From Acholoe squamosa (Eukaryota > Annelida > Polychaeta > Phyllodocida > Polynoidae), in contig OX439036.1 of the NCBI GenBank assembly GCA_949317995.1, positions 6,056,356 to 6,120,355 of the forward strand: a stretch of 64,000 nucleotides of DNA, in the 5' to 3' direction. Every line of letters starts with the position of its first letter. Within the stretch, counting starts at the first letter, position 1. Positions 3,266 to 60,430 of this stretch are shown here, piece by piece. The translations under genes were made by a program, and so were the position numbers. The notes below the pieces were generated by a model. It was not told the DNA's origin. It saw only the letters and a program-made list of their open reading frames with translations, and ran no database searches.

Positions 3266-3526
3266 TAAACTCTTAAAAGGCCGCTGATGCAGGAGTGCAT
3301 CATGCCCTGTGGTCAGCATGATGCACCAATAAAGTGCTGGCGAAACTGCTTGGCAGCACCTCATTGGTGCATCATGCCAACCCTACGGGTTGATACACAT
3401 ACTCTCGCAGGGTCGGCATGATGCTCCAATGAAGCGCTGGTGAGTAGTCTTGCCAGCACTTCATTGGTGCATCATGATGACCAATGGGCATGATGCATTA
3501 TTGCATCAGGGCCCTTAAAGGGTTAA
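3266..3526 (+). mobile_element. Family A element, full length (cloverleaf-type MITE)
   Basis: About 261 bp. The outer ends pair over about 50 nt (left TTAAAAGGCCGCTGATGC, right GCATCAGGGCCCTTAAAGG). Inside are two hairpin arms of about 25 bp each (GATGCACCAATAAAGTGCTGG... and GATGCTCCAATGAAGCGCTGG-type, each with its reverse complement) and a short central arm (CCAACCCTACGGG...AGGGTCGG). The right end is GGGTTAA. It has no open frame of interest and is one of several full copies (also 23423, 33479, 38813, 44319). Confidence 0.85.
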
Positions 3527-6118: not shown

Positions 6119-6494
6119 ACAGGCTCTACTCATACATCACGTGACCCATACTAGGCCCACTGTACTATAGCTGTTTAAATGCTGCATGATGGGATAGGCT
6201 TAGGTAATGATTCTCATTATCTAACTCCTTTTTATTGGGAGGTGAATATCATACCCACAGAATTAATTTAACTTCTAGAGTAAATTAGCTCAAGAGCATC
6301 AATAGGGGAAAGGAGTATGCACGCACAGAATGACCCAGGATGTTCAAATGAGGCCCCCTTTCACAATTAAGCAATACATGGTTTTTGTTCGTTTTCTATT
6401 TGTTGGATACCATGAGTTTTCGTGAAAAAATAAAGACATCTTGTCTATCCTGAAAATATTCAATACATGTGTAGAGGTTGGCGGAAAACGTCCT
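6119..6494. other. No gene seen
   Basis: No open frame or repeat of note. A tRNA-like unit on the minus strand begins just beyond it. Confidence 0.55.
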
Positions 6495-6565
6495 GGAGAA
6501 AACGGGAGTCAAACCCGGGACCCTCCAACCTGCAGGCGGAAGCTCTACCGCTGAGCTACTTCCCC
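6495..6565 (-). tRNA. tRNA-Cys(GCA)-like sequence, probably pseudogene or SINE head
   Basis: Read on the minus strand, 71 nt fold as a tRNA. The acceptor GGGGAAG pairs with TTTCTCC (with G-U pairs), the D arm is GCTC/GAGC, and the anticodon loop CTGCAGG gives anticodon GCA. The T loop is TTTGACT. The A box TAGCTCAGCGG is intact and the B box GGTTTGACTCC has one change from GGTTCGANTCC. Defects: one mismatch in the anticodon stem, one in the T stem, and several G-U pairs in the acceptor. This points to a decayed tRNA-Cys or the head of a tRNA-derived SINE rather than a working gene. Confidence 0.55.
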
Positions 6566-8121: not shown

Positions 8122-8994
8122 ACAACCCTAGCCTATAAATCCATCTCCCCAGGACTGCATTCATGCATCATGCCATCCTCCCAGTAACCCTAGCCTATAA
8201 ATCCACCTCCCCAGGACCGCATTCATGCATAATGCCATCCTCGCAGTAACCCTAGCTTATAAATCCACCTCCCCAGGACTGCATTCATGCATCATGCCAT
8301 CCTCCCAGTAACCCTAGCCTATAAATCCATCTCCCCAGGACTGCATTCATGCATCATGCCATCCTCCCAGTAACCCTAGCCTATAAATCCACCTCCCCAG
8401 GACCGCATTCATGCATCATGCCATCCTCCCAGTAACCCTAGCCTATAAATCCACCTCCCCAGGACCGCATTCATGCATAATGCCATCCTCGCAGTAACCC
8501 TAGCCTATAAATCCACCTCCCCAGGACCGCATTCATGCATAATGCCATCCTCGCAGTAACCTAGCCTATAAATCCATCTCCCCAGGACTGCATTCATGCA
8601 TCATGCCATCCTCCCAGTAACCCTAGCCTATAAATCCACCTCCCCAGGACCGCATTCATGCATAATGCCATCCTCGCAGTAACCCTAGCCTATAAATCCA
8701 CCTCCCCAGGACCGCATTCATGCATAATGCCATCCTCGCAGTAACCCTAGCCTATAAATCCACCTCCCCAGGACCGCATTCATGCATAATGCCATCCTCG
8801 CAGTAACCCTAGCCTATAAATCCATCTTCCCAGGACTGCATTCATGCATCATGCCATCCTCCCAGTAACCCTAGCCTATAAATCCATTTCCCCAGGACTG
8901 CATTCATGCATCATGCCATCCTGCCAGTAACCCTAGCCTATAAATCCATTTCCCCAGGACTGCATTCATGCATCATGCCATCCTCCCAGTAGGA
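8122..8994 (+). repeat. 62-bp minisatellite, ~14 units
   Basis: Successive CAGTAACCCTAG starts are 62 bp apart (8182, 8244, 8306 ...). Each unit carries CCTATAAATCCACCTCCCC and GCATTCATGCATCATGCC or its variant GCATTCATGCATAATGCC. The two variants (ACTGCATTC...ATCATGCC with CTCCC, and ACCGCATTC...ATAATGCC with CTCGC) are mixed in blocks. The GCATTCATGCATCATGCC half matches an arm of family A, so the array may have been seeded by that element. Confidence 0.95.
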
Positions 8995-9030
8995 GTAGAC
9001 TAGTAGGATGCAGTGCTGAATCCAACCCTT

Positions 9031-9289
9031 GCCAGGGCTGCACTGGTGCGTCATGCGGTGCCGGGGCTGCACTGGTGCGTCATGCGGTGCCGGGGCTGCA
9101 CTGGTGCGTCATGCGGTGCCGGGGCCGCACTGGTGCGTCATGCGGTGCCAGGGCCACACTGGTGCGTCATGCGGTGCCAGGGCCGCACTGATGCGTCATG
9201 CAGTGCCAGGGCTGCACTGATGCGTCATGCGGTGCCGGGGCTGCACTGATGCGTCATGCCATGCCAGCATTGCACTGATGCATCATGCC
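9031..9289 (+). repeat. 29-bp minisatellite, ~9 units
   Basis: GTGCGTCATGCGGTGCC repeats at 9046, 9075, 9104 and onwards with 29-bp spacing; the last units drift to GATGCATCATGCC and run into a family A fragment. Because 29 is not a multiple of 3, the frame cycles through all three phases, which explains the Cys/His-rich open frames of 63-78 codons. Confidence 0.92.
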
Positions 9290-9440: not shown

Positions 9441-9453
9441 TGACTCTTTCCGT

Positions 9454-9701
9454 AAGCCTTCAAGGGCTGCTGATGCATTAAGGCTTCATGAAAATTGGAT
9501 GTTACGATGCATTCATGCAGTCCTGTAGATTAACTCAACAGGGCTGCATTCATGCATCATGCTGACCGTACAGACTTTATACATCCCGTCAGAATGCACA
9601 GATGAAGTGGTGGCAACAGCGTCGCAAGCGCTTCATTGGTATATATCGTGGCGACCAATGGGCATGATGAACTGATGCATCAGCGGCATTTAAAGGGTTA
9701 A
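9454..9701 (+). mobile_element. Family A element, diverged full-length copy
   Basis: Left end CCTTCAAGGGCTGCTGATGC, right end GATGCATCAGCGGCATTTAA, followed by AGGGTTAA. The internal arms are decayed (AGTCCTGTAGATTAACTCAACAGGGCTGCATTCATGCATC type, position 9518-9560; third arm at 9592-9645). Confidence 0.7.
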
Positions 9702-23225: not shown

Positions 23226-23422
23226 AGTTTATGTTAGTATTAGTATAGCTACCAGGCTAGGAAACATAGAACATACCAAGAGTGTTGAACTAAAGTCAAT
23301 GGATCTATTAATGGTCGAGGCATAATCAAATATAAACAGACTATAGGCTTACATGCATATGATATACTTGCTGCTAATATTAGTACACCCTCCATGCTCC
23401 TTTACCAATAGCAGTACACCCC
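23226..23422. other. Nothing recognised
   Basis: Short A+T-rich spacer between two family A copies. Confidence 0.5.
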
Positions 23423-23683
23423 TAACCCTTTAAAGGGACACTGATGTATTAATGCATCACGCCCATTGGTCGTCATGATGCACCAATGAAGTGCTGGGGA
23501 GACTGCTCGCCAGCACTTCATTGGAGCATCATGCCGACCCTCCGGGAGTTATGTATCAACTCTGTAGGGTCGTCGTGATGCACCAATGAAGTACTGCCGA
23601 GTAGACCTGCCAGCACTTCATTGGTGCATCATGCCGACCAATGGGCATGATGCACTTCAGCATCAGCGGCCCTTAAAGGGTTA
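23423..23683 (+). mobile_element. Family A element, reference-quality full copy
   Basis: 261 bp. Outer stem: TAACCCTTTAAAGGGACAC at the left pairs with the CAGCGGCCCTTAAAGGGTTA end, continuing through GCCCATTGGTCGTCATGATG / CGACCAATGGGCATGATGC. Arm 1 is 23477-23530 (25-bp stem, ACTG loop), arm 2 is 23535-23572 (CGACCCT / AGGGTCG closing pair) and arm 3 is 23577-23630 (about 25-bp stem with a few mismatches). The whole element can fold into a four-way cloverleaf. It has no coding capacity, so any movement would need an enzyme from elsewhere. Confidence 0.9.
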
Positions 23684-24394
23684 TTCTAGTGCACCATGAT
23701 GACAAATAAACGTGAAATTATTGAGGCATCATCCATACCTTCCTAAATAGGGCCAGTCACAACTATTCAAATTAGTTCTATTGTTAACTTTTCCCTATTC
23801 AATATATCACATTTGATAGGCCTACAAGTAAGTGTTGGTATTTTGATGAGAGGAAGGAATTCCATGAACCACACCGCAGTGGTAAAAAGTTATCATCAAC
23901 CTACTCAAACTAAGGTATGTGAAACTGGGGAAGGTTTGTGGTCGGATTCACAAATGAACATTATTTTCTAATTCAAAGAAAATATATAACTGATTTGACC
24001 CCAGTTGACAAAAGCTTGTTATTTCAGGAAAATCCTATAAACAGTCATAACAACTCAGGGTGCGGTTTATACAGGAAAATTAGTTTCAGTTCTGCTTAGA
24101 AACACATTATTGTTGGCTGTGTTTGTAAATTGAGGTGAAGCCTTGGGGCACCATTGCGCGGTGAGCTCTAGTTGCAGCTCCATGGTCCACTTAGTATTAT
24201 ATAGAGGTGGGGTATACATTACCTTGGGGGTATGTACTAATCAGCAACTTTCTCATTCTCTATTTTAACCCTTCAAAACCATTTTGACGATACAAGGTGC
24301 GGCCCAGAAGGAGGGGGCCCATCCCCATTTTTGGGTCAAAAATAACTAAATAAACTCTAATCTGAAGGGGGGGGGGGGAATCAACCACTTGTGA
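23684..24394. other. No gene seen
   Basis: No open frame or family match. A G run at 24366-24378 marks its right side. Confidence 0.5.
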
Positions 24395-30699: not shown

Positions 30700-31030
30700 T
30701 CGATTAATCCTTTAAGGGAAGCTGATGTATTAATACAGCGTGCTCATTGGCCAGCACGATGCATCAACACGACCCTGGCTACATCCATACATCATGCTGA
30801 CCCTACCAGGATTGATACAGTCCCAAAGGCTCGACATGATGCACCAATGAAGTGCTTGTGAGAAAACTCGCCAGCACTTCATTGGTGCAGCGTGCTAAAA
30901 ATTTCAAGAACTAAATCAACCCCATAGGGTCGGCATGGCGCATCAATGTAGCGAGTTACTCGCCAGGGCTACATTCATGCATCATGTCAACCAATACTTG
31001 TGATGCACTTATGCACCAGCGGCCGTTAGA
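30700..31030 (+). mobile_element. Family A element, long variant
   Basis: Starts CCTTTAAGGGAAGCTGATGT, has arms of both kinds (CCAATGAAGTGCTTGTGAG / CGCCAGCACTTCATTGG and a 'gcgagttactcgccagggctacattcatgcatcatg' type at 30948-30986) and ends CACCAGCGGCCGTTAGAGGG. The 48-bp array follows without a gap. Confidence 0.75.
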
Positions 31031-31032
31031 GG

Positions 31033-31608
31033 GATCAATGGGCATGATGCACTCCTGCATCTTTAGCAGCCCTTAAAGGGGTCAATGGGCATGATGCACT
31101 CCTGCATCATCAGCGGCCCTTAAAGGTATCAATGGGCATGATGCACTCCTGCATCATCAGCGGCCCTTAAAGGGTGTCAATGGGCATGATGCACTCCTGC
31201 ATCATCAGCAGCCTTAAAGGGATCAATGGGCATGATGCACTCCTGCATCATCAGCGGCCCTTAGAGGGATCAATGGGCATGATGCACTCCTGCATCATCA
31301 GCGGCCCTTAAAGGGTGTCAATGGGCATGATGCATTCCTGCATCATCAGCAGCCTTAAAGGTGTCAATGGGCATGATGCACTCCTGCATCATCAGCGGCC
31401 CTTAGAGGGATCAATGGGCATGATGCACTCCTGCATCATCAGCGGCCCTTAGAGGGATCAATGGGCATGATGCACTCCTGCATCATCAGCGGCCCTTAGA
31501 GGGATCAATGGGCATGATGCACTCCTGCATCATCAGCGGCCCTTAGAGGGATCAATGGGCATGATGCACTCCTGCATCATCAGCAGCCCTTAAAGGGATC
31601 AATCCTTA
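31033..31608 (+). repeat. 48-bp minisatellite, ~12 units, made of the family A right end
   Basis: Unit: ATCAATGGGCATGATGCACT, CCTGCATCATCAGCGGCCC and TTAGAGGG. That is the last 48 bp of a family A element repeated head to tail. Unit length varies between 44 and 50 because of short indels (CATCTTTAGCAG, AGGTATC, AGGGTGTC variants). Confidence 0.95.
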
Positions 31609-47505: not shown

Positions 47506-47554
47506 TATTATGTTGAAAAGGACAAATCTTACAAAAATAATAGGAAGTACTCAC

Positions 47555-50500
47555 CAGGGTCCTTGGGTGACGTAGTGACGTAGGTCGGTATGACGTCAGG
47601 CGGCACCGGAAGCTGACCCTGCGTCTCCCCAGCGTCTCCTGAGCTGCTCGAGGCGTACTTCCTGTTCTGCTCGTTCTTCCGTTTCCGCTGTTCGTACATC
47701 TGCTCACTGGTCGTCTTAGAAGTCCCTGCTGCGTTATTATTCACATTGTCACCGACACCATCAAAGGCCCCAGGTATCCAATCAGCCTGCTTCCTCTTAA
47801 CCCTCATGGATTCAATCAATGTTGCCCTTTCTCCATGGACAATCTCAGGGGCGGCATCATCCAGCTTCCTCACTCTAAATGATGGCTCAGTGGTGGCTAC
47901 AAACTTTAATGCCTTATCCACGGCAGATACAGGCCCGGTCTTCCTGAGGCCGGTGATGGGATCCATATCTCCTGTGGTATCACCTGTGGTGGTAGTAGTG
48001 GTAGAGGATGGGCCCACCTGGAGGAGGTCTGGGGCCGTGTGTCCTGACGTCTGCTGCAGGTGTGCTGGTGGTTGTTGTACACCTGTGGGGTACTGGAGTG
48101 AGTGTGTACCAGTTGTAGTACTACTACTGCCCCATGGTTGTGCTCCAGTACTGGTACGCTGAGAGGAGGTGGGAGCAATGCTCTGTGTACCGTGAAGATC
48201 CCCTGTAGTAGTACTACTACCACCACCAGTAGTGAAGGTATTACTACTAGTGTCCTCACTGTCCCAGTACAACTGCCCTGTTGCCGCCACACGCCGCACG
48301 GGGGCGCTACCTGTACTGCTACCACTCCCTGCTGCAGCCTGCTGATGCCATGTGGCGCCCTCTGGTGTGGATTCATCAAACTGGTAGTCCTTACCTCCCT
48401 GACTGTGGAACACTGTGGTGCCTGTTCGAGCCACTGCAGATAGCTCTCCACTGCCCTGCCTGCTCGTCCTATGGGTATCAGTTTGTAGGGAGAAGCCCTG
48501 GGTACCTCCAGGGGTGGGGCTTATTATGGATGTGGGTGGAGTACCAGGCGAAGTGGGCGTGGCTGTGGGAGGAGGTGGGGCTTGGCGCTTGTGGCGAGGG
48601 GGTGAGAGTGCAGTGCGTGGCGGAGACGGGGCCATATGGGCAGGTCGTGTCACTCGTTTAGGGCTCGTGAGCTGCTCTGCTGGAGATTTTGTTATTGGTT
48701 CATCTGCCCTACTTTCCTCCCAGGCTGAAGTGACAGCCATAGACCTAGCCTCCATCTTTAAAACAGGTGACTCCTTTGGCGGGGATTCAACCTGATCGTT
48801 CCGTGTCATCTTAATGAGTTTTGGTGCTCCTGGGTTTGCATCTTGTACTGGAGGAGGTGGGGGAGGCGATGTGGGCCGCGTTGATACAGGAGTTAGATTT
48901 AGCACCACACCAGTCTTCTTGGGGCTCGGTGACTTATCCTTCTCCCTCTCCTTCTCTCTATCTTCATCAAGGGAGTCGGAGTGGGAGCGATTGTGATAGG
49001 ACACCAAGGTTATCCCCGAGTCACCATCATCGTCCAGTTTGATACAAGTGCGTGAAGTCCCCCGCATATGAGCTACCTCATCCCCTGACCCAATATGCTT
49101 ACCGGGCTCAAATGTTGCCCGGAATGGCACATCTGTGTCAGATAAGTCTGAGTCGTCAGAGAGTTCACCCGATTTGGCAAGACTAGATGCGTCAAGGTTG
49201 GTGCTACTCTCACTCTCACCATAATTAGAAGCACTTTCATAGGTTGAACTATCCTGGGGTGACACATAAATGTCTGTTTTGTACACCAGCCTGGAGTTCT
49301 CCAGGGGTGTGCCTCTACCCTGGAGCATATACTCCTCCTCAGCTGTCATACCAGATGGTACATTCTCATCACTAGTCTCCGGACGGTACTGATGAGAGTC
49401 AAGATCAAGTATAATGCGTGAGTTCCCACTTTGAGGTCTCTTTGGCGGACTGACCTCAGGACTCGAGAGGTCTACAATTGTCTTGTATGGCTTATCGTTG
49501 ATTAAAGAGTCAAGCCTTTCATTGGCATTGCGCACAGTTTCAGCTCTATTTCCCTTAGTAGCAGTAAATGAATTGTTCATGTTATTGTCATCATCAGCGA
49601 AATCAAGTCTTACGTTTGTCTTATGCCGAAGTTGAGTCTCCGGAGAAGACTTATCGGATAGAGTGATAGTTGTGGCCTTATTGTGTGATGACACATTTGG
49701 ACTTGTCATATTTACCATGACCTGATTCTGATGTTTTACTTGATGCTGAAACCCCACATCTCCATGGTCATCCTCATCCCGTAAACTCAAAATAACTGTG
49801 TTTCCTTTCTGAGGCGAATCCTCTGCATCAACACTAGACTCTAACAGGTCATCATGCTGATAGCCGAACAAAGTGGCTCGCATGCGATCCAACTCGAGCT
49901 TTCTTTGCTGAGCCTCCATGTCTTCTTCTTCTTCAGTTTCTGCGAGGTTTTCTGAATGCCCTGTATAATAACTACCTGAGTCTATCTCACCCTGATCATG
50001 CTTCTGTACTAAGTTTCTGCCTTCTGTCAATGAGCTGGTATCATGTGTTGAGCTAGGTCGTTGTTTCCATGAGGGTCGCTTCTTCCTAGGGGGTGCTATT
50101 GGAGAGCTGTGCTGCTGGGGCCCTAATTTGGGATGTTCTATGTAGGCTATAGAGTGGGGGCGGGAGCGACCAGGCGCCTGAGACTCCTGGTCTGGGGGAT
50201 GGACAGGTCTCCTTGGAGGTGCGGATGGAGGTGTCGGCGCTCGCCGCTTGGGTGAGGAACGCAGTGGACTCGGAGCAGACTCTTGAGCCTTCTCTCCCTG
50301 GGAATCAATCGACACAAATATTGGCTGAGTAGGATCTAAAGTCTGTTTTTCACTGCCAACAGTGACCTTTTTATTGTTTTCACTAGAGAGCTTTGTCACT
50401 TGAGACGTACCAGCACTAGTCCGCTCTCGCAGTTTCTCTAACTTCTTTCGTGGAGATTTCCTCCTCGGTGGAGGGATAGGTGAGGCATGTTCAGAGAAGA

Positions 50501-51881
50501 AGTTGGGTGGCAATGAGATGCGATACTGGGCTGCATTGGCACTTTGTGTCTGAGGTCTGGGTTTTACTACTACAGGCTCCTGGATCTCTATGGGTTTATC
50601 TAAGGTAGGAGGTGTGACAATATCTATAGGATTCTCTTTAATTTGAGCTTTAACGATCTCTGGAGGCTTCTCTACAACAGGAGGTATCACATTCTCTATA
50701 GGCTTGTCTGCAGTTGGAGGTATCACACTTTCCGGATTGAAAGACTCTGATGTTTGCTGAGCGTTCCAAGGAGAAGAGGTTCTAAAGTCATCATCACCAG
50801 CCTTGGACTTGGCAACTACTTCTACGCATGCCTCTTTGCGTTTCTGCTCCTGATTATTAACACTTACACTAATCTCATTATTAGAGTCAGGCAGAAGAGG
50901 ACTGAAATCTTCTGACTCCACAACTTTTTGAGATTCTACTTGAGTAACTATTATGTGCTCCTCATTTTCAATTTTGACATCTTTGAGAGAAGTGTCACTT
51001 TGTTCGGGCTCCTGAGATAATTCTATAATTTTGCTGTCCTGACTAAGATCCTCACATTTGGCACCATCAGTTTCAAACAATGCTGAATCAGGATCACCAC
51101 TAGGCGTATCTTGCACTAACTCCTCTTTCTGTTCTACTTGCAAACTGCCCTTATCCCTCAAATCATCAAGTTCTCTATCATTTTCATCATCACACACCTT
51201 TTTAATCACATTATTGTTACTTTCACCAGGTTTACTTATGGCAACATTACGCACCTTATTACTAGAATCTTTGACTTCCTTTTCAGTTTTCCCTGCAGCA
51301 GAGGCTTCTGAGTTTGCAGTCTCCCCACTCTCCAAGGCCTCACTTTTCTGACACTCTGCCCCAAGTTCTGGTGAAGAGGCTAGTGATGGTTCAGTTATGC
51401 CACTCTCTACCCTATCACTCTCCTCTCCACTCTCTGGGAGTACTGATCCACTGCTCTCTGACACAGTCTCTTTATGAGTCCCTCCCTCTGACACAGTCTC
51501 TTTAAGAGCCTCCCGCTCTGACGCGGCCTCTTTAAGGGCCTCACTATCTGGCGCGGCCTCTTTAAGGGCCTCCCTACCCTTTAATTTATCCTGAATGAAC
51601 CCCCTGGAGGCACTAGTAGGCTGGCTAGAGTCAGACAGACTCCTTCTGCTGCCAAAGTCATGCAGGAGACGCGCGCGGTTATAGGCGTCCCCGTAGTTCC
51701 GTCGTTGTGCGGTGGTGGCGCTGGTGGTTGGGAGGAGGAGGCGGGAACTGCCGGAGAGGAGTTCTAGCGTCCCGTCACTGCTAATACGGCGTCTGGATAA
51801 CGGGTTCTGCCAACCTCCTACACTAACAGGGGTGGGAGAGGACGCAGGGGGAGAGGACGCCTTCTCTGCTGATGGGGTCTC
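47555..51881 (-). CDS. Large internal exon of a disordered, Ser/Pro-rich protein, function unknown
   Basis: Minus-strand exon of 4,327 nt. Its acceptor is TTATTTTCAG then GAGACCCC, and its donor is GACCCTG then GTGAGT. It is open throughout in one frame, about 1,442 residues, ending in phase 1. The start and stop codons lie in other exons; the GTG at 51494 is an ordinary valine. Residues, counted from the exon start: 103-142, four 10-residue repeats like EALKEAASE; about 383-432, VIPP/KPIE-type repeats; 465-475 SPIPPPRRK, 553-562 APPRRPVHPP and 595-605 APPRKKRPSWK, basic Pro clusters resembling SH3 ligands; 645-672 an EEEE-rich segment into a short coiled coil (QQRKLELDRMRATLF); about 690-1000, seven hydrophobic/acidic motifs such as TIVDLSSPEVSP and RIILDLDSHQ; 1003-1010 PPPPPP; 1180-1305 Ser/Thr/Gly-rich; 1319-1376 a basic, more ordered block with KFVATTEPSFRVRKLDD and IESMRVKRKQADWIPG. 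It is probably a cytoplasmic or nuclear scaffold or cytoskeletal adaptor (inference). I do not recognise the family and give no symbol. Confidence 0.9.
51456..51575 (-). repeat. In-frame 30-bp coding minisatellite, 4 units
   Basis: On the plus strand the words CCTCTTTAAGGGCCTC / TCTCTTTAAGAGCCTC recur every 30 bp. Each unit encodes ten residues (EALKEAA-type, then EALKETV and THKETV). The outermost units differ most, so the array is older at one side. Confidence 0.88.
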
Positions 51882-53674: not shown

Positions 53675-56655
53675 CCTCCATATACTTCTCACACTAAACC
53701 CTTCCTCTATATACTACTCACACCATGAGTTACTCTCCTCACCATACATTAACCCCCTCCATATACTACTCACACCATGAGCTGCTCCCCTCACCATACA
53801 CTAACCCCCTCCATACACTACTCACACCATGAGCTGTTCCCCTCATCATACACTAACCCCCTCCATATACTACTCACACCATGAGCTGCTCCCCTCACCA
53901 TACACTAACTCCCTCTATATACTACTCACACCATGAGCTGCTCTCCTCACCATACAGTAACCCCCTCCATATACTACTCACACCATGAGCTGCTCCCCTC
54001 ACCATACACTAACCCCCTCCATACACTACTCACACCATGATCTGCTCTCCTCACCATACACTAACCCCCTCCATATATTACTCACACCATGAGCTGCTCC
54101 CCTCACCATACACTAACTCCCTCTATATACTACTCACACCATGAGCTGCTCCCCTCACCATACACTAACTCCCTCTATATACTACTCACACCATGAGCTG
54201 CTCTCCTCACTTTACACTAAACCCTCCATATACTACTCACACCATGAGCTGCTCCCCTCACCATACACTAACCCCCTCCATATACTACTCACACCATGAG
54301 CTGCTCTCCTCACCATACACTAACTCCTCCATATACTACTCACACCATGAGCTGCTCCCCTCACCATACACTAACTCCCTCTATATACTACTCACACCAT
54401 GAGCTGCTCCCCTCACCATACACTAACTCCCTCTATATACTACTCACACCATGAGCTGCTCCCCTCACCATACACTAACCCCCTCCATATACTACTCACA
54501 CCATGAGCTGCTCCCCCCACCATACACTAACCCCCTCCATATACTACTTACACCATGAGCTGCTCTCCTCACCATACACTAACCCCCTCCATATACTACT
54601 CACACCATGAGTTACTCCCCTCACCATACACTAACCCCCTCCATATACTACTCACACCATGAGCTGCTTTCCTCACCATACACTAACCCCCTCCATATAC
54701 TACTTACACCATGAGCTGCTCTCCTCACCATACACTAACCCCCCTCAATATACTACTCACACCATGAGCTGCTCCCCTCACCATACACTAACTCCCTCTA
54801 TATACTACCAACACCATGAGCTGCTCCCCTCACCATACACTAACCCCCTCCATATACTACTCACACCATGAGCTGCCCCCCTCACCATACACTAACCCCC
54901 TCCATATACTACTCACACCATGAGTTACTCCCCTCACCATACACTAACCCCCTCCATATACTACTCACACCATGAGTTACTCCCCTCACCATACACTAAC
55001 CCCCTCTATATACTACCCACACCATGAGCTGCTCCCCTCACCATACACTAACCCCCTCCATATACTACTCACACCATGAGCTGCCCCCCTCACCATACAC
55101 TAACCCCCTCCATATACTACTCAGACCATGAGCTGCTCCCCTCACCATACACTAACCCCCTCCATATACTACTCACACCATGAGCTGCTCTCCTCACCAT
55201 ACACTAACCCCCTCCATATACTACTTACACCATGAGCTGCTCTCCTCACCATACACTAACCCCCCTCCATATACTACTCACACCATGAGCTGCTCCCCTC
55301 ACCATACACTAACTCCCTCTATATACTACCAACACCATGAGCTGCTCCCCTCACCATACACTAACCCCCTCCATATACTACTCACACCATGAGCTGCCCC
55401 CCTCACCATACACTAACCCCCTCCATATACTACTCACACCATGAGCTGCCCCCTCACCATACACTAACCCCCTCCATATACTACTCACACCATGAGCTAC
55501 TCCCCTCACCATACACTAACCCCCTCCATATACTACTCACACCATGAGCTGCTCCGCTCACCATACACTAACCCCCTCCATATACTACTCACACCATGAG
55601 TTACTCCCCTCACCATACACTAACCCCCTCCATATACTACTCACACCATGAGTTACTCCCCTCACCATACACTAACCCCCTCTATATACTACCCACACCA
55701 TGAGCTGCTCCCCTCACCATACACTAACCCCCTCCATATACTACTCACACCATGAGCTGCCCCCCTCACCATACACTAACCCCCTCCATATACTACTCAC
55801 ACCATAAGCTGCTCCCCTCGCCATACACTAACCCCCTCCATATACTACTCACACCATGAGCTGCTCCCCTCACCATACACTAACCCCCTCCATATACTAC
55901 TCACACCATGAGCTGCTCTCCTCACCATACACTAACCCCCTCCATATACTACTCACACCATGAGCTGCTCCCCTCGCCATACACTAACCCCCTCCATATA
56001 CTACTCACACCATGAGCTGCTCCCCTCACCATACACTAACCCCCTCCATATACTACTCACACCATGAGCTGCTCCCCTCACCATGCACCAAGCCCTCCCT
56101 CCATATACTACTCACACCATGAGCTGCTCCCCTCACCATACACTGACCCCCTCCATATACTTCTCACACCATGAGCTGCTCCCCTCACCATACACTAACT
56201 CACTCTATATACTACTCACACCATGAGCTGTTCCCCTCTCCATACACTAACCCCCTCCATATACTACTCACACAATGAGCTGCTCTCCTCACCATACACT
56301 AACCCCCTCCATATACTACTCACACCATGAGCTGCTCCCCTCACCATGCACTAACTCCCTCTATATACTACTCACACCATGAGCTGCTCCCCTCACCATA
56401 CACTAACCCCCTCCATATACTACTCACACCATGATCTGCTCCCCTCACCATACACTAACCCCCTCCATATACTACTTACACCATGAGCTGCTCTCCTCAC
56501 CATACACTAACCCCCTCCATATACTACTCACACCATGAGCTACTCCCCTCACCATACACTAATCCCCTCCATATACTACTCACACCATGAGCTGCTCTCC
56601 TAACCATTGACTGACCCCCTCCATATACTACTCACACCATGAGCTGCTCCTCTCA
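53675..56655 (+). repeat. 52-bp minisatellite, ~57 units (3 kb) with higher-order structure
   Basis: Unit words: CACCATGAGCTGCTCCCCTC, ACCATACACTAACCCCCTCC and ATATACTACT, 52 bp in total. Variant units (GAGTTACTCC, GAGCTGCCCCC, CTCTATATACTACCCACACC, ACTTACACC, TACCAACACC) recur in the same order at fixed distances. 54660-54880 matches 55181-55401 at +521 bp (10 units) and 54922-55080 matches 55598-55755 at +676 bp (13 units). The short His/Ser/Tyr-rich frames inside are artefacts. Confidence 0.97.
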
Positions 56656-57209
56656 CACCAGGTCGTGACCTACTTGGAGCTGGTCCCAGTATGAGTTGCT
56701 CACTCATATAGGTGTTACTACACAGTGAGTAGTTCACCTCACACTTGGCGATACACAGGGCGGGTCAGTGAAGCGGAACGGGCCACTAATCGATATTTAG
56801 CCCTGGCGCAGTATGTTGGACCGCGGAGAAACAATCTGACACAATCCTGCCTTAGGTATATTCAGCATTGCATGATTTGATTGTCAAACGGTTATATTAA
56901 TGGTGTGCGTGTGCAACTACGAGAAGCAGTTATAATCTAGCATATCTATCAGTAGATAATACTAATGATTACCAGGTATGTGACAGCTTGTACACTAGAT
57001 ATCAAGAGGATATTTATTACACTTGTCATTTTTATTCCCCTGGTTGAGTTTAATACAATGTTCTAAACTAGGCTTCCAGGTTTTCCAAAAAGTTAGGAAA
57101 TGTTGTACAGCCTGGCGATATGAGCCACTCAATATGACAGATGTGTCAGCTGTTGGAGAGGTGCTGTGTGTACATATGGGTGTATGGATGGGTGGAGGCT
57201 GAATATATT
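56656..57209. other. No gene seen
   Basis: The first 90 bp still echo the array (GAGTTGCTCACTC, GTTCACCTCACAC). The rest is single-copy-looking. Confidence 0.5.
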
Positions 57210-59867: not shown

Positions 59868-60430
59868 CACATCATTGGTGCATCATGCCGACCAATGGGC
59901 ATGGTGCACTCCTGCATCATTGGTGCATCATGCCGACCAATGGGCATGATGCACTCCTGCATCATTGGTGCATCATGCCGACCAATGGGCATGATGCACT
60001 CCTCCATCATTGGTGCATCATGCCGACCAATGGGCATGATGCACTCCTCCATCATTGGTGCATCATGCCGACCAATGGGCATGATGCACTCCTGCATCAT
60101 TGGTGCATCATGACGACCAATGGGCATGATGCACTCCTGCATCATTGGTGCATCATGCCGACCAATGGGCATGATGCACTCCTGCATCATCGGTGCATCA
60201 TGCCGACCAATGGGCATGATGCACTCCTGCACCATTGGTGCATCATGCCGACCAATGGGCATGATGCACTCCTGCATCATTGGTGCATCATGCCGACCAA
60301 TGGGCATGATGCACTCCTGCATCATTGGTGCATCATGCCGACCAATGGGCATGATGCACTCCTGCATCATCGGTGCATCATGCCGACCAATGGGCATGAT
60401 GCACTCCTCCATGAGCAGCCCTTAAAGGGA
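59868..60430 (+). repeat. 45-bp hairpin minisatellite, 12 units, made of family A sequence
   Basis: Unit words: TTGGTGCATCATGCCGACCA, ATGGGCATGATGCACTCC and TGCATCA, 45 bp. GCATCATGCC and GGCATGATGC in every unit are reverse complements with an 8-nt loop. The last unit runs into GAGCAGCCCTTAAAGGG, the family A right end. As 45 is a multiple of three and the unit lacks stops in several frames, long repetitive open frames arise on both strands (182 and 200 codons); they are not genes. Confidence 0.97.

What the first reader, a model, noticed from the sequence alone, without database searches (positions are those of the whole stretch)
23423..23683. Abundant element family (A) predicted to fold as a four-way cloverleaf
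Seen: full copies of about 260 bp at 3266, 23423, 33479, 38813 and 44319 share one layout. An outer stem of about 50 bp carries three internal arms: two 25-bp hairpins with an ACTG loop and a shorter central arm closed by CGACCCT/AGGGTCG. More than 20 partial copies are scattered through the window. Ordinary MITEs form one hairpin; a conserved multi-arm fold with paired substitutions would be unusual. No protein is encoded.
Basis: partly seen in the sequence, partly recalled or inferred. Interest (0 to 1): 0.72.

Follow-up and report, generated by a model that had tools for sequence, protein, structure and literature searches.

The report
Cloverleaf-shaped palindromic jumping-DNA fragment
The repeat is a short non-coding piece of jumping DNA of the piggyBac type whose sister family is built as a nearly perfect four-way cloverleaf, and the copies in this window look like a version in which one half was copied backwards over the other, which explains most of their paired changes without a need for selection.

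Summary
Five full copies (about 250-263 bp) lie where stated, with the described arms; 33 related stretches cover 10.6% of the window. The element is a non-autonomous DNA transposon (MITE) of piggyBac type: TTAA-CCCTTT...GGG-TTAA ends, and one nested insertion into a TTAA. The genome holds piggyBac transposases; the parent element was not found. There are two architectures. The window's five copies are 'X-X': both side arms are the same hairpin, so the consensus folds best as one long hairpin (-158 against -137 kcal/mol for the cloverleaf). A sister family, 'Y-X', has two different side arms and folds as a four-way cloverleaf (-145.7). X-X equals Y-X with arm 1 and centre replaced by an inverted copy of centre and arm 2; 42 of 43 X-X copies fit that best. 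This template-switch signature explains the paired differences between the families. Among copies, compensation is clear only in the Y arm; the outer stem has none in Y-X and a modest excess at the tips in X-X. Selection on the fold is not shown. Well-preserved copies cluster near chromosome ends.

The parts
23422..23684 (+). X-X element, the copy of the finding (263 bp); its TTAA ends have decayed to CTAA and TTAT
   Evidence: class X-X, margin 10.7 bits
23422..23482 (+). outer stem, left side: decayed TTAA, CCCTTT tip and palindrome TGATGTATTAATGCATCA
23483..23524 (+). side arm 1, type X (19-bp stem in the consensus)
23525..23582 (+). centre arm, closed by CGACCCT/AGGGTCG; inverted relative to the Y-X family
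23583..23624 (+). side arm 2, type X
23625..23684 (+). outer stem, right side
3266..3526 (-). X-X element
   Evidence: margin 7.1 bits
33478..33726 (-). X-X element
   Evidence: margin 10.4 bits
38814..39076 (-). X-X element (near-palindromic; one search scores it best on the + strand, on the - strand)
   Evidence: margin 8.2 bits
44319..44574 (-). X-X element with a deletion in one side arm; orientation of its centre uncertain (margin 0.8 bits)
9453..9700 (+). degraded Y-X (cloverleaf-type) element
   Evidence: margin 3.5 bits
13779..13964 (-). shortened, degraded Y-X element
   Evidence: margin 6.2 bits
37699..37932 (-). degraded Y-X element
   Evidence: margin 2.3 bits
30810..31034 (-). degraded Y-X element that runs into a tandem array
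   Evidence: margin 3.3 bits
46818..47005 (+). copy with recognisable ends and part of the arms lost (188 bp)
31017..31603 (+). tandem array, 47 bp x 12.5, made of the right end of the element
59870..60412 (+). tandem array, 45 bp x 12.1, made of the right part of the element

Best explanation
It is a piggyBac-type MITE: a non-coding element cut and pasted into TTAA sites by a transposase supplied in trans (ends and one nested insertion shown; the transposase that moves it is inferred). Its body is a palindrome of palindromes. The Y-X architecture is a four-way cloverleaf (outer stem, arm Y, centre arm, arm X). The abundant X-X architecture, to which the finding's copies belong, arose from Y-X when an inverted copy of centre plus arm X replaced arm Y and the centre. 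The likely mechanism is DNA-polymerase template switching, or an equivalent inverted gene conversion, between the inverted repeats; the product then spread. The same copying inside tight hairpins would keep short arms self-complementary. The fold is therefore maintained mainly by how palindromes are copied, not by selection on an RNA or on inserted copies (inferred).
For: Ends TTAACCCTTTAAGGG.../...AAAGGGTTAA in the consensus. 19 of 46 TIR-bounded elements of 180-290 bp keep TTAA at both ends, the commonest pair (the elements were sought with TTAA in the pattern, up to 3 mismatches). L024:4946-5205 sits in the internal TTAA of another copy, and the joined flanks align across the site with relatives. 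piggyBac transposase PF13843 has 90 exon-wise matches in the genome, the best in open frames of 486 and 443 aa without a stop; three of ten fetched piggyBac loci show TTAACCC[AT] end pairs. Termini CCC..GGG fit piggyBac and not Kolobok (5'-RR..YY-3') (passages of PMC10813416 and PMC9587614). Folds. Inverted copy: the product predicted from the Y-X consensus matches the X-X consensus at 255 of 263 columns, against 239 of 265 for Y-X itself and 252 of 264 for an arm swap without inversion. X-X arm 1 plus centre: 94 of 101 columns inverted against 78 of 103 direct, and 42 of 43 copies agree. Template switching is known to homogenise inverted-repeat arms and to invert the spacer (PMC8604942, abstract). 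The best X-X hits are closer to their consensus (median 7.6%, 41 rows of which one is a stray at 36%) than the best Y-X hits (10.9%, 39 copies), which fits Y-X first. In Y-X, compensation is absent in the far-apart outer stem and present in a tight arm.
Against: No autonomous element with the same ends was found: none within about 1.5-kb flanks of ten piggyBac loci, and none in two 1.1-kb flanks of an eleventh; most loci were not looked at. The direction Y-X to X-X rests on divergence of samples chosen as best hits to one query each, and on parsimony; no tree was built. Seven of 111 classified copies score best as X-X with the centre not inverted, two of them by 8 bits or more, so more than one event, or flips, may have occurred. 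The tight X arm shows no excess compensation in these sets (8 against 6.6; 12 against 10.2 over both side arms in X-X), which template copying alone would predict for both arms. The X-X outer stem does show a modest excess, in its first 17 pairs. Some Y-arm changes (pair 67/95 in L076, L089, L094, L097) may be one inherited change.
Confidence: 0.73

Rival explanations
1. The four-way fold itself is selected: source elements need the cruciform or hairpins to be mobilised or amplified, for example through a folded single-stranded or extruded intermediate.
For: The Y-X consensus is a nearly fully paired cloverleaf. Arm types differ by compensated pairs: X against Y at five positions, further mirrored types at L010:7542, L016:3294 and L024:4544. 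The Y arm has an excess of compensated changes, and so, modestly, do the first 17 pairs of the X-X outer stem (9 against 4.3, 12 of 400). Whole-structure cells with changes on both sides are 57 against 39.1 in shuffles, 0 of 500.
Against: The Y-X outer stem and centre show no excess. The slid controls reach 46 such cells at +1 and -3. The X-X family prefers a different fold. One inverted copy explains the X/Y set. The side arms of 43 close X-X copies decay independently (12 against 10.2).
Confidence: 0.15
2. The arms are clusters of transposase-binding half-sites (TGATGCA/TGCATCA at the base of every arm), kept for protein binding; the palindromic fold is a by-product.
For: Both consensuses carry eight TGATGC[AT] or [AT]GCATCA half-sites. 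The palindrome TGATGCATTAATGCATCA starts at the 16th base inside the TTAA, much as T. [quoted passage not shown] exact piggyBac spacing recalled).
Against: No binding data. The 19-bp arm stems beyond the half-sites are not explained. No autonomous relative with such sites was found in the loci seen.
Confidence: 0.25
3. The conserved fold is that of an RNA (small-RNA or structured non-coding RNA gene).
For: RNA folding energies are also very low.
Against: No Rfam match to the copies at gathering scores, no consistent covariation over the helices, dispersed TTAA-bounded copies on many contigs. No expression data could be seen.
Confidence: 0.03
4. The X-X copies arose by recombination between two different Y-X elements in inverted orientation, not by intramolecular template switching.
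For: It would give the same product. Copies sit close to or inside each other.
Against: It needs a second element and two exchanges. The present data do not exclude it.
Confidence: 0.25

Closest known systems
piggyBac-superfamily MITEs (for example mPok1/mPok2 of Daphnia Pokey, named in the abstract start listed)
   Same: non-autonomous relatives of a piggyBac-type element; TTAA target and CCC..GGG ends (for Pokey recalled, not read)
   Different: body made of nested palindromes that form a four-way junction; two sister architectures related by an inverted copy; autonomous partner not found here
Foldback-like elements such as Galileo (P superfamily; PMC4168063, passages)
   Same: long inverted repeats; sequence recruited from the interior or from one TIR into both; tandem repeats inside the TIRs
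   Different: other superfamily and target (7- or 8-bp duplication); no internal hairpin arms described in the passages seen
Quasipalindrome template-switch mutations (PMC8604942 abstract; PMC3820800 abstract start)
   Same: arm homogenisation plus spacer inversion in one event
   Different: here the changed element then amplified as a family in its own right
Angel and similar palindromic MITEs of fish (recalled; the search found no paper)
   Same: whole element is nearly one hairpin
   Different: recalled as single hairpins, no internal arms

Membership tests
piggyBac-type MITE | TTAA target-site duplication | tested here: met
   19 of 46 elements have TTAA at both ends; nested insertion L024:4946-5205 in GCA|TTAA|TGC of another copy, joined flanks align with relatives
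piggyBac-type MITE | terminal inverted repeats that begin with CCC (CCCTT the commonest) | tested here: met
   consensus; motif from PMC10813416 passages
piggyBac-type MITE | no transposase coding capacity | tested here: met
   about 250-263 bp; no ORF of 150 aa or more overlaps the five copies
piggyBac-type MITE | autonomous relative with the same ends in the genome | tested here: inconclusive
   transposases present; none of ten loci with about 1.5-kb flanks, nor two flanks of one more, carries these ends; L050/L051 have arrays that resemble the end
Kolobok-type MITE (also TTAA) | termini 5'-RR and YY-3' | tested here: not met
   termini are CCC..GGG; rule from PMC9587614 passages
structured non-coding RNA | covariation over the helices | tested here: inconclusive
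   clear excess in one of four Y-X helices; modest at the tips of the X-X outer stem; whole structure above shuffles but slid controls come close on cells with both sides changed
structured non-coding RNA or miRNA | transcript or small-RNA products | not testable with these tools
   no expression data
template-switch product | arm homogenised and spacer inverted relative to a sister | tested here: met

The most novel reading that the evidence does not exclude
The extruded four-way junction is the substrate: a piggyBac-like transposase, or a host junction enzyme, recognises eight TGATGCA half-sites displayed on a cruciform, so that the fold itself drives excision or replicative amplification. 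Template switching then keeps producing new arm layouts on which this selection acts (X-X, Y-X, and copies with an apparent further X arm).
Probability: 0.08. Interest if true: 0.85.

Novelty: new variant of a known kind. Interest (0 to 1): 0.47.

Why it matters
MITEs are usually described as single hairpins. Here one family has a four-way-junction plan, its sister is a near-perfect palindrome, and the step between them can be read letter by letter as an inverted copy. That makes a concrete case for how palindromic mobile DNA renews its symmetry, and it warns that paired substitutions in such repeats need not mean selection on a structure. The concentration of well-preserved copies near chromosome ends asks for an explanation.

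Tried and rejected
A wrong first model. In some searches I placed the cloverleaf junction at position 46 and took two 'diagnostic' sites per arm as evidence against the cloverleaf. The Y-X family showed that the junction lies at about position 60, where those sites pair correctly. One search repeats the energies and counts with the right junction; the earlier arm numbers should not be used.

A first Y-X set from the loci at hand (40 copies) was old and partly misaligned. Its counts gave an excess in the X arm (27 against 15.7) and Y arm (17 against 10.6), but a slide of +1 also exceeded its own shuffles (87 against 68.6). It is superseded by 39 copies (38 newly fetched plus L026) chosen by a genome search. 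The X-X and Y-X sets are mainly best hits to one query each and are biased towards well-preserved copies.

piggyBac loci L050/L051 have 38-bp arrays that resemble the element's end. I took them as a possible parent. In the extended flanks of L050 the array is followed by a stretch that I read by eye as a transposase exon; Pfam found nothing in that 49-aa piece. So whether the arrays lie inside or beside the gene is not settled, and parentage is not shown. An eleventh piggyBac locus gave no matching ends in the two flanks seen.

A miscount of my own. One search counted 4 of 22 piggyBac loci near contig ends from an incomplete list; the full list of distinct loci (one on C3 left out) gives 9 of 36, expected 13.3. 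One search gave the X-X median for the 43 least diverged of 66 copies; one search repeats it for the best hits, with the same value.

Organism: large contigs C1-C18 and 1.48 Gb first suggested a top shell. Gibbula magus has 1,470 Mb, 18 pseudomolecules and a longest scaffold of 117.5 Mb (PMC10394393, passages), which does not match C1 of 127.1 Mb. Pfam haemocyanin and egg-lysin families found nothing (the control genomes were empty too, so this shows little). The species stays unknown.

Literature: searches for the element's sequence (no paper) and for MITE with cloverleaf, cruciform, palindrome, piggyBac or foldback words (listed 15 of 15, 10 of 10, 20 of 43, 15 of 24, 20 of 42 and 0) showed no paper that by title or abstract start describes such an element. 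I read passages or an abstract of six papers only.

Not done: a tree of the copies, the distribution of degraded copies, a control repeat for the chromosome-end bias (not completed), a search for arm-less families.

Full report
What was checked. The window is C2:6056356-6120355 of a 1.48-Gb genome in 63 contigs. It is taken to be a eukaryote from size and gene structure; the species was not identified. The five full copies lie at the stated places and the described arms are there. Related stretches cover 6,754 bp (10.6%) of the window in 33 pieces. The DNA search with the copy of the finding listed 4,275 first-look candidates, of which 40 were scored, all with matches.

What it is. I collected 66 near-full copies from the window, twenty 10-kb loci and nineteen short loci around the best genome hits. 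The consensus of the 45 best is 263 bp, TTAACCCTTTAAGGGCC...GGGTTAA. Of 46 TIR-bounded elements of 180-290 bp, 19 have TTAA at both ends; of 16 others printed, 12 have it at one end; 11 were not printed. The pattern that found them contained TTAA with up to 3 mismatches. One X-X copy, L024:4946-5205, sits inside the internal TTAA (GCA|TTAA|TGC) of another copy (both flanks read), and its joined flanks align across the site with uninterrupted relatives, the best 84% over 109 columns. TTAA duplication with CCC..GGG ends is the piggyBac signature. Kolobok, the other TTAA superfamily in the paper seen, has 5'-RR..YY-3' ends (PMC9587614 passages; PMC10813416 passages). The genome has 90 exon-wise matches to the piggyBac transposase family. 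I did not find the autonomous element with these ends in the eleven loci looked at.

Two architectures. Some copies carry a different first arm. A genome search with the best of these (L026:4496-4738) scored 40 of 3,403 first-look candidates, all matching. 38 were fetched and, with L026, give a 258-bp consensus. It folds as DNA at -145.7 kcal/mol into a four-way cloverleaf: outer stem of 56 pairs with a 4-nt bubble, arm Y of 19 pairs, centre arm of 22 pairs, arm X of 19 pairs. The X-X consensus instead folds best as one long hairpin (-158.4); the cloverleaf with the junction at position 60 has -137.4. Among 111 near-full copies classified against eight composite layouts, 60 are Y-X in either orientation, 49 X-X and 2 uncertain Y-Y. 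Many margins are small: 45 of 111 reach 8 bits. The proportions are not genome frequencies, since most copies were fetched as hits to one or the other query. Of those long enough to fold, 34 of 55 Y-X copies have three arms of 10 bp or more, and 45 of 48 X-X copies have one.

How X-X arose. The X-X centre is the reverse complement of the Y-X centre (alignment score 27.5 inverted, 17.0 direct). Replacing arm Y and the centre of Y-X by an inverted copy of centre plus arm X predicts the X-X consensus at 255 of 263 columns; one of the eight misses is a base lost in my own join. Y-X itself gives 239 of 265, and an arm swap without inversion 252 of 264. Per copy, 42 of 43 close X-X copies fit the inverted copy best. 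The arm-1 loop ACTG is the inverse of the arm-2 loop CAGT, and the base of arm 1 carries the inverse of the arm-2 base. Template switching between inverted repeats is reported to homogenise arms and invert spacers (PMC8604942, abstract). One event thus can explain the five compensated differences between arms X and Y at this position. The best X-X hits are closer to their consensus (median 7.6%) than the best Y-X hits (10.9%, 39 copies), which suggests Y-X came first; both samples are best hits to a query. Seven copies score as X-X without inversion.

Covariation. In 43 close X-X copies the side arms show 12 doubly changed, still-paired cells against 10.2 by chance for the cloverleaf pairing, and 11 against 10.8 for the hairpin pairing. 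Their outer stem shows 16 against 9.3 (4 of 400 shuffles; 9.5 and 8 of 400 on repetition). That excess sits in the first 17 pairs (9 against 4.3, 12 of 400) and not in pairs 18-60 (7 against 5.0). In the 23 more diverged copies of that set, the cloverleaf arms show 50 against 29.9 and the hairpin pairing 24 against 44.8; several of them are Y-X copies. In the 39 Y-X copies: outer stem 20 against 20.2, centre 7 against 6.8, X arm 8 against 6.6, Y arm 18 against 10.0 (outside CpG 10 against 2.9, 0 of 400), all helices 53 against 43.6 (25 of 400). The independent count gives 57 doubly changed cells against 39.1 (0 of 500), while slid controls reach 46. Copy L064 alone carries two compensated pairs in arm Y. 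Of 176 arms found by their halves, further mirrored types exist (L010:7542, L016:3294, L024:4544); the search required both halves with at most two mismatches at fixed positions, which favours paired arms but leaves the five variable positions free. So paired change is real between arm types and in the tight Y arm, and weak or absent over most of the outer stem. That pattern fits copying inside hairpins better than selection for the whole cloverleaf, but the quiet X arm is not explained.

How it most likely works. Shown: TTAA ends, nested insertion, two folds, inverted-copy relation. Inferred: mobilisation in trans by a piggyBac transposase; binding of that transposase to the palindrome TGATGCATTAATGCATCA, by analogy with the palindrome bound by two cysteine-rich domains in piggyBac and piggyBat ends (PMC11707139 passages); template switching as the actual copying route.

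Other features. Well-preserved copies lie near chromosome ends: 85 of 97 exact matches to a 47-base end pattern are within 15 Mb of a contig end, expected fraction 0.368 (3 further matches on C3 left out because its length is not known exactly). So do 38 of 40 best X-X and 40 of 40 best Y-X hits. Distinct piggyBac transposase loci do not: 9 of 36, expected 13.3. Whether degraded copies share the bias was not tested. Pieces of the element also make up tandem arrays.

Verdict. A real, well-described repeat; a new variant of a known kind.

Noticed in passing
C1-C18 of the genome; window itself at C2:6.06-6.12 Mb: Well-preserved copies are strongly concentrated within 15 Mb of contig ends (85 of 97 exact matches; 38 of 40 best X-X; 40 of 40 best Y-X), while distinct piggyBac transposase loci are not (9 of 36, expected 13.3).
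   Followed up: partly
window 31017-31603 and 59870-60412; L010:8251-8723; L016:6079-7048: Tandem arrays with units of 47, 45 and 73 bp (and a mixed array in L016) made of pieces of the element: its arms or ends seem to seed satellites.
   Followed up: no
L070, L073, L092: After arm X the outer stem is followed by what looks like a further X arm, so arms may be gained as modules (3 of 39 Y-X copies; seen, for L070 and L073 also; stretch cut at 296 bp).
   Followed up: no
L050, L051, L059: Two piggyBac gene loci share 38-bp arrays (TTAACCCTTTATGGATGGCATGATGCATTGATGCACA) that resemble the end of the element; inside or beside the gene is not settled.
   Followed up: partly
window 47529-51494 (-): An open frame of 1,321 codons without a Pfam match.
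   Followed up: partly
window 53704-56656: A 52-bp tandem array of about 57 copies, 93% alike; its relation to the element was not tested.
   Followed up: no
window 8124-8991 and 9030-9288: Arrays with 62- and 29-bp units that contain GCATCATGC- or CGTCATGC-like motifs of the element's arms.
   Followed up: no
window 6494-6565 (-): A tRNA match to RF00005, 42.1 bits.
   Followed up: no
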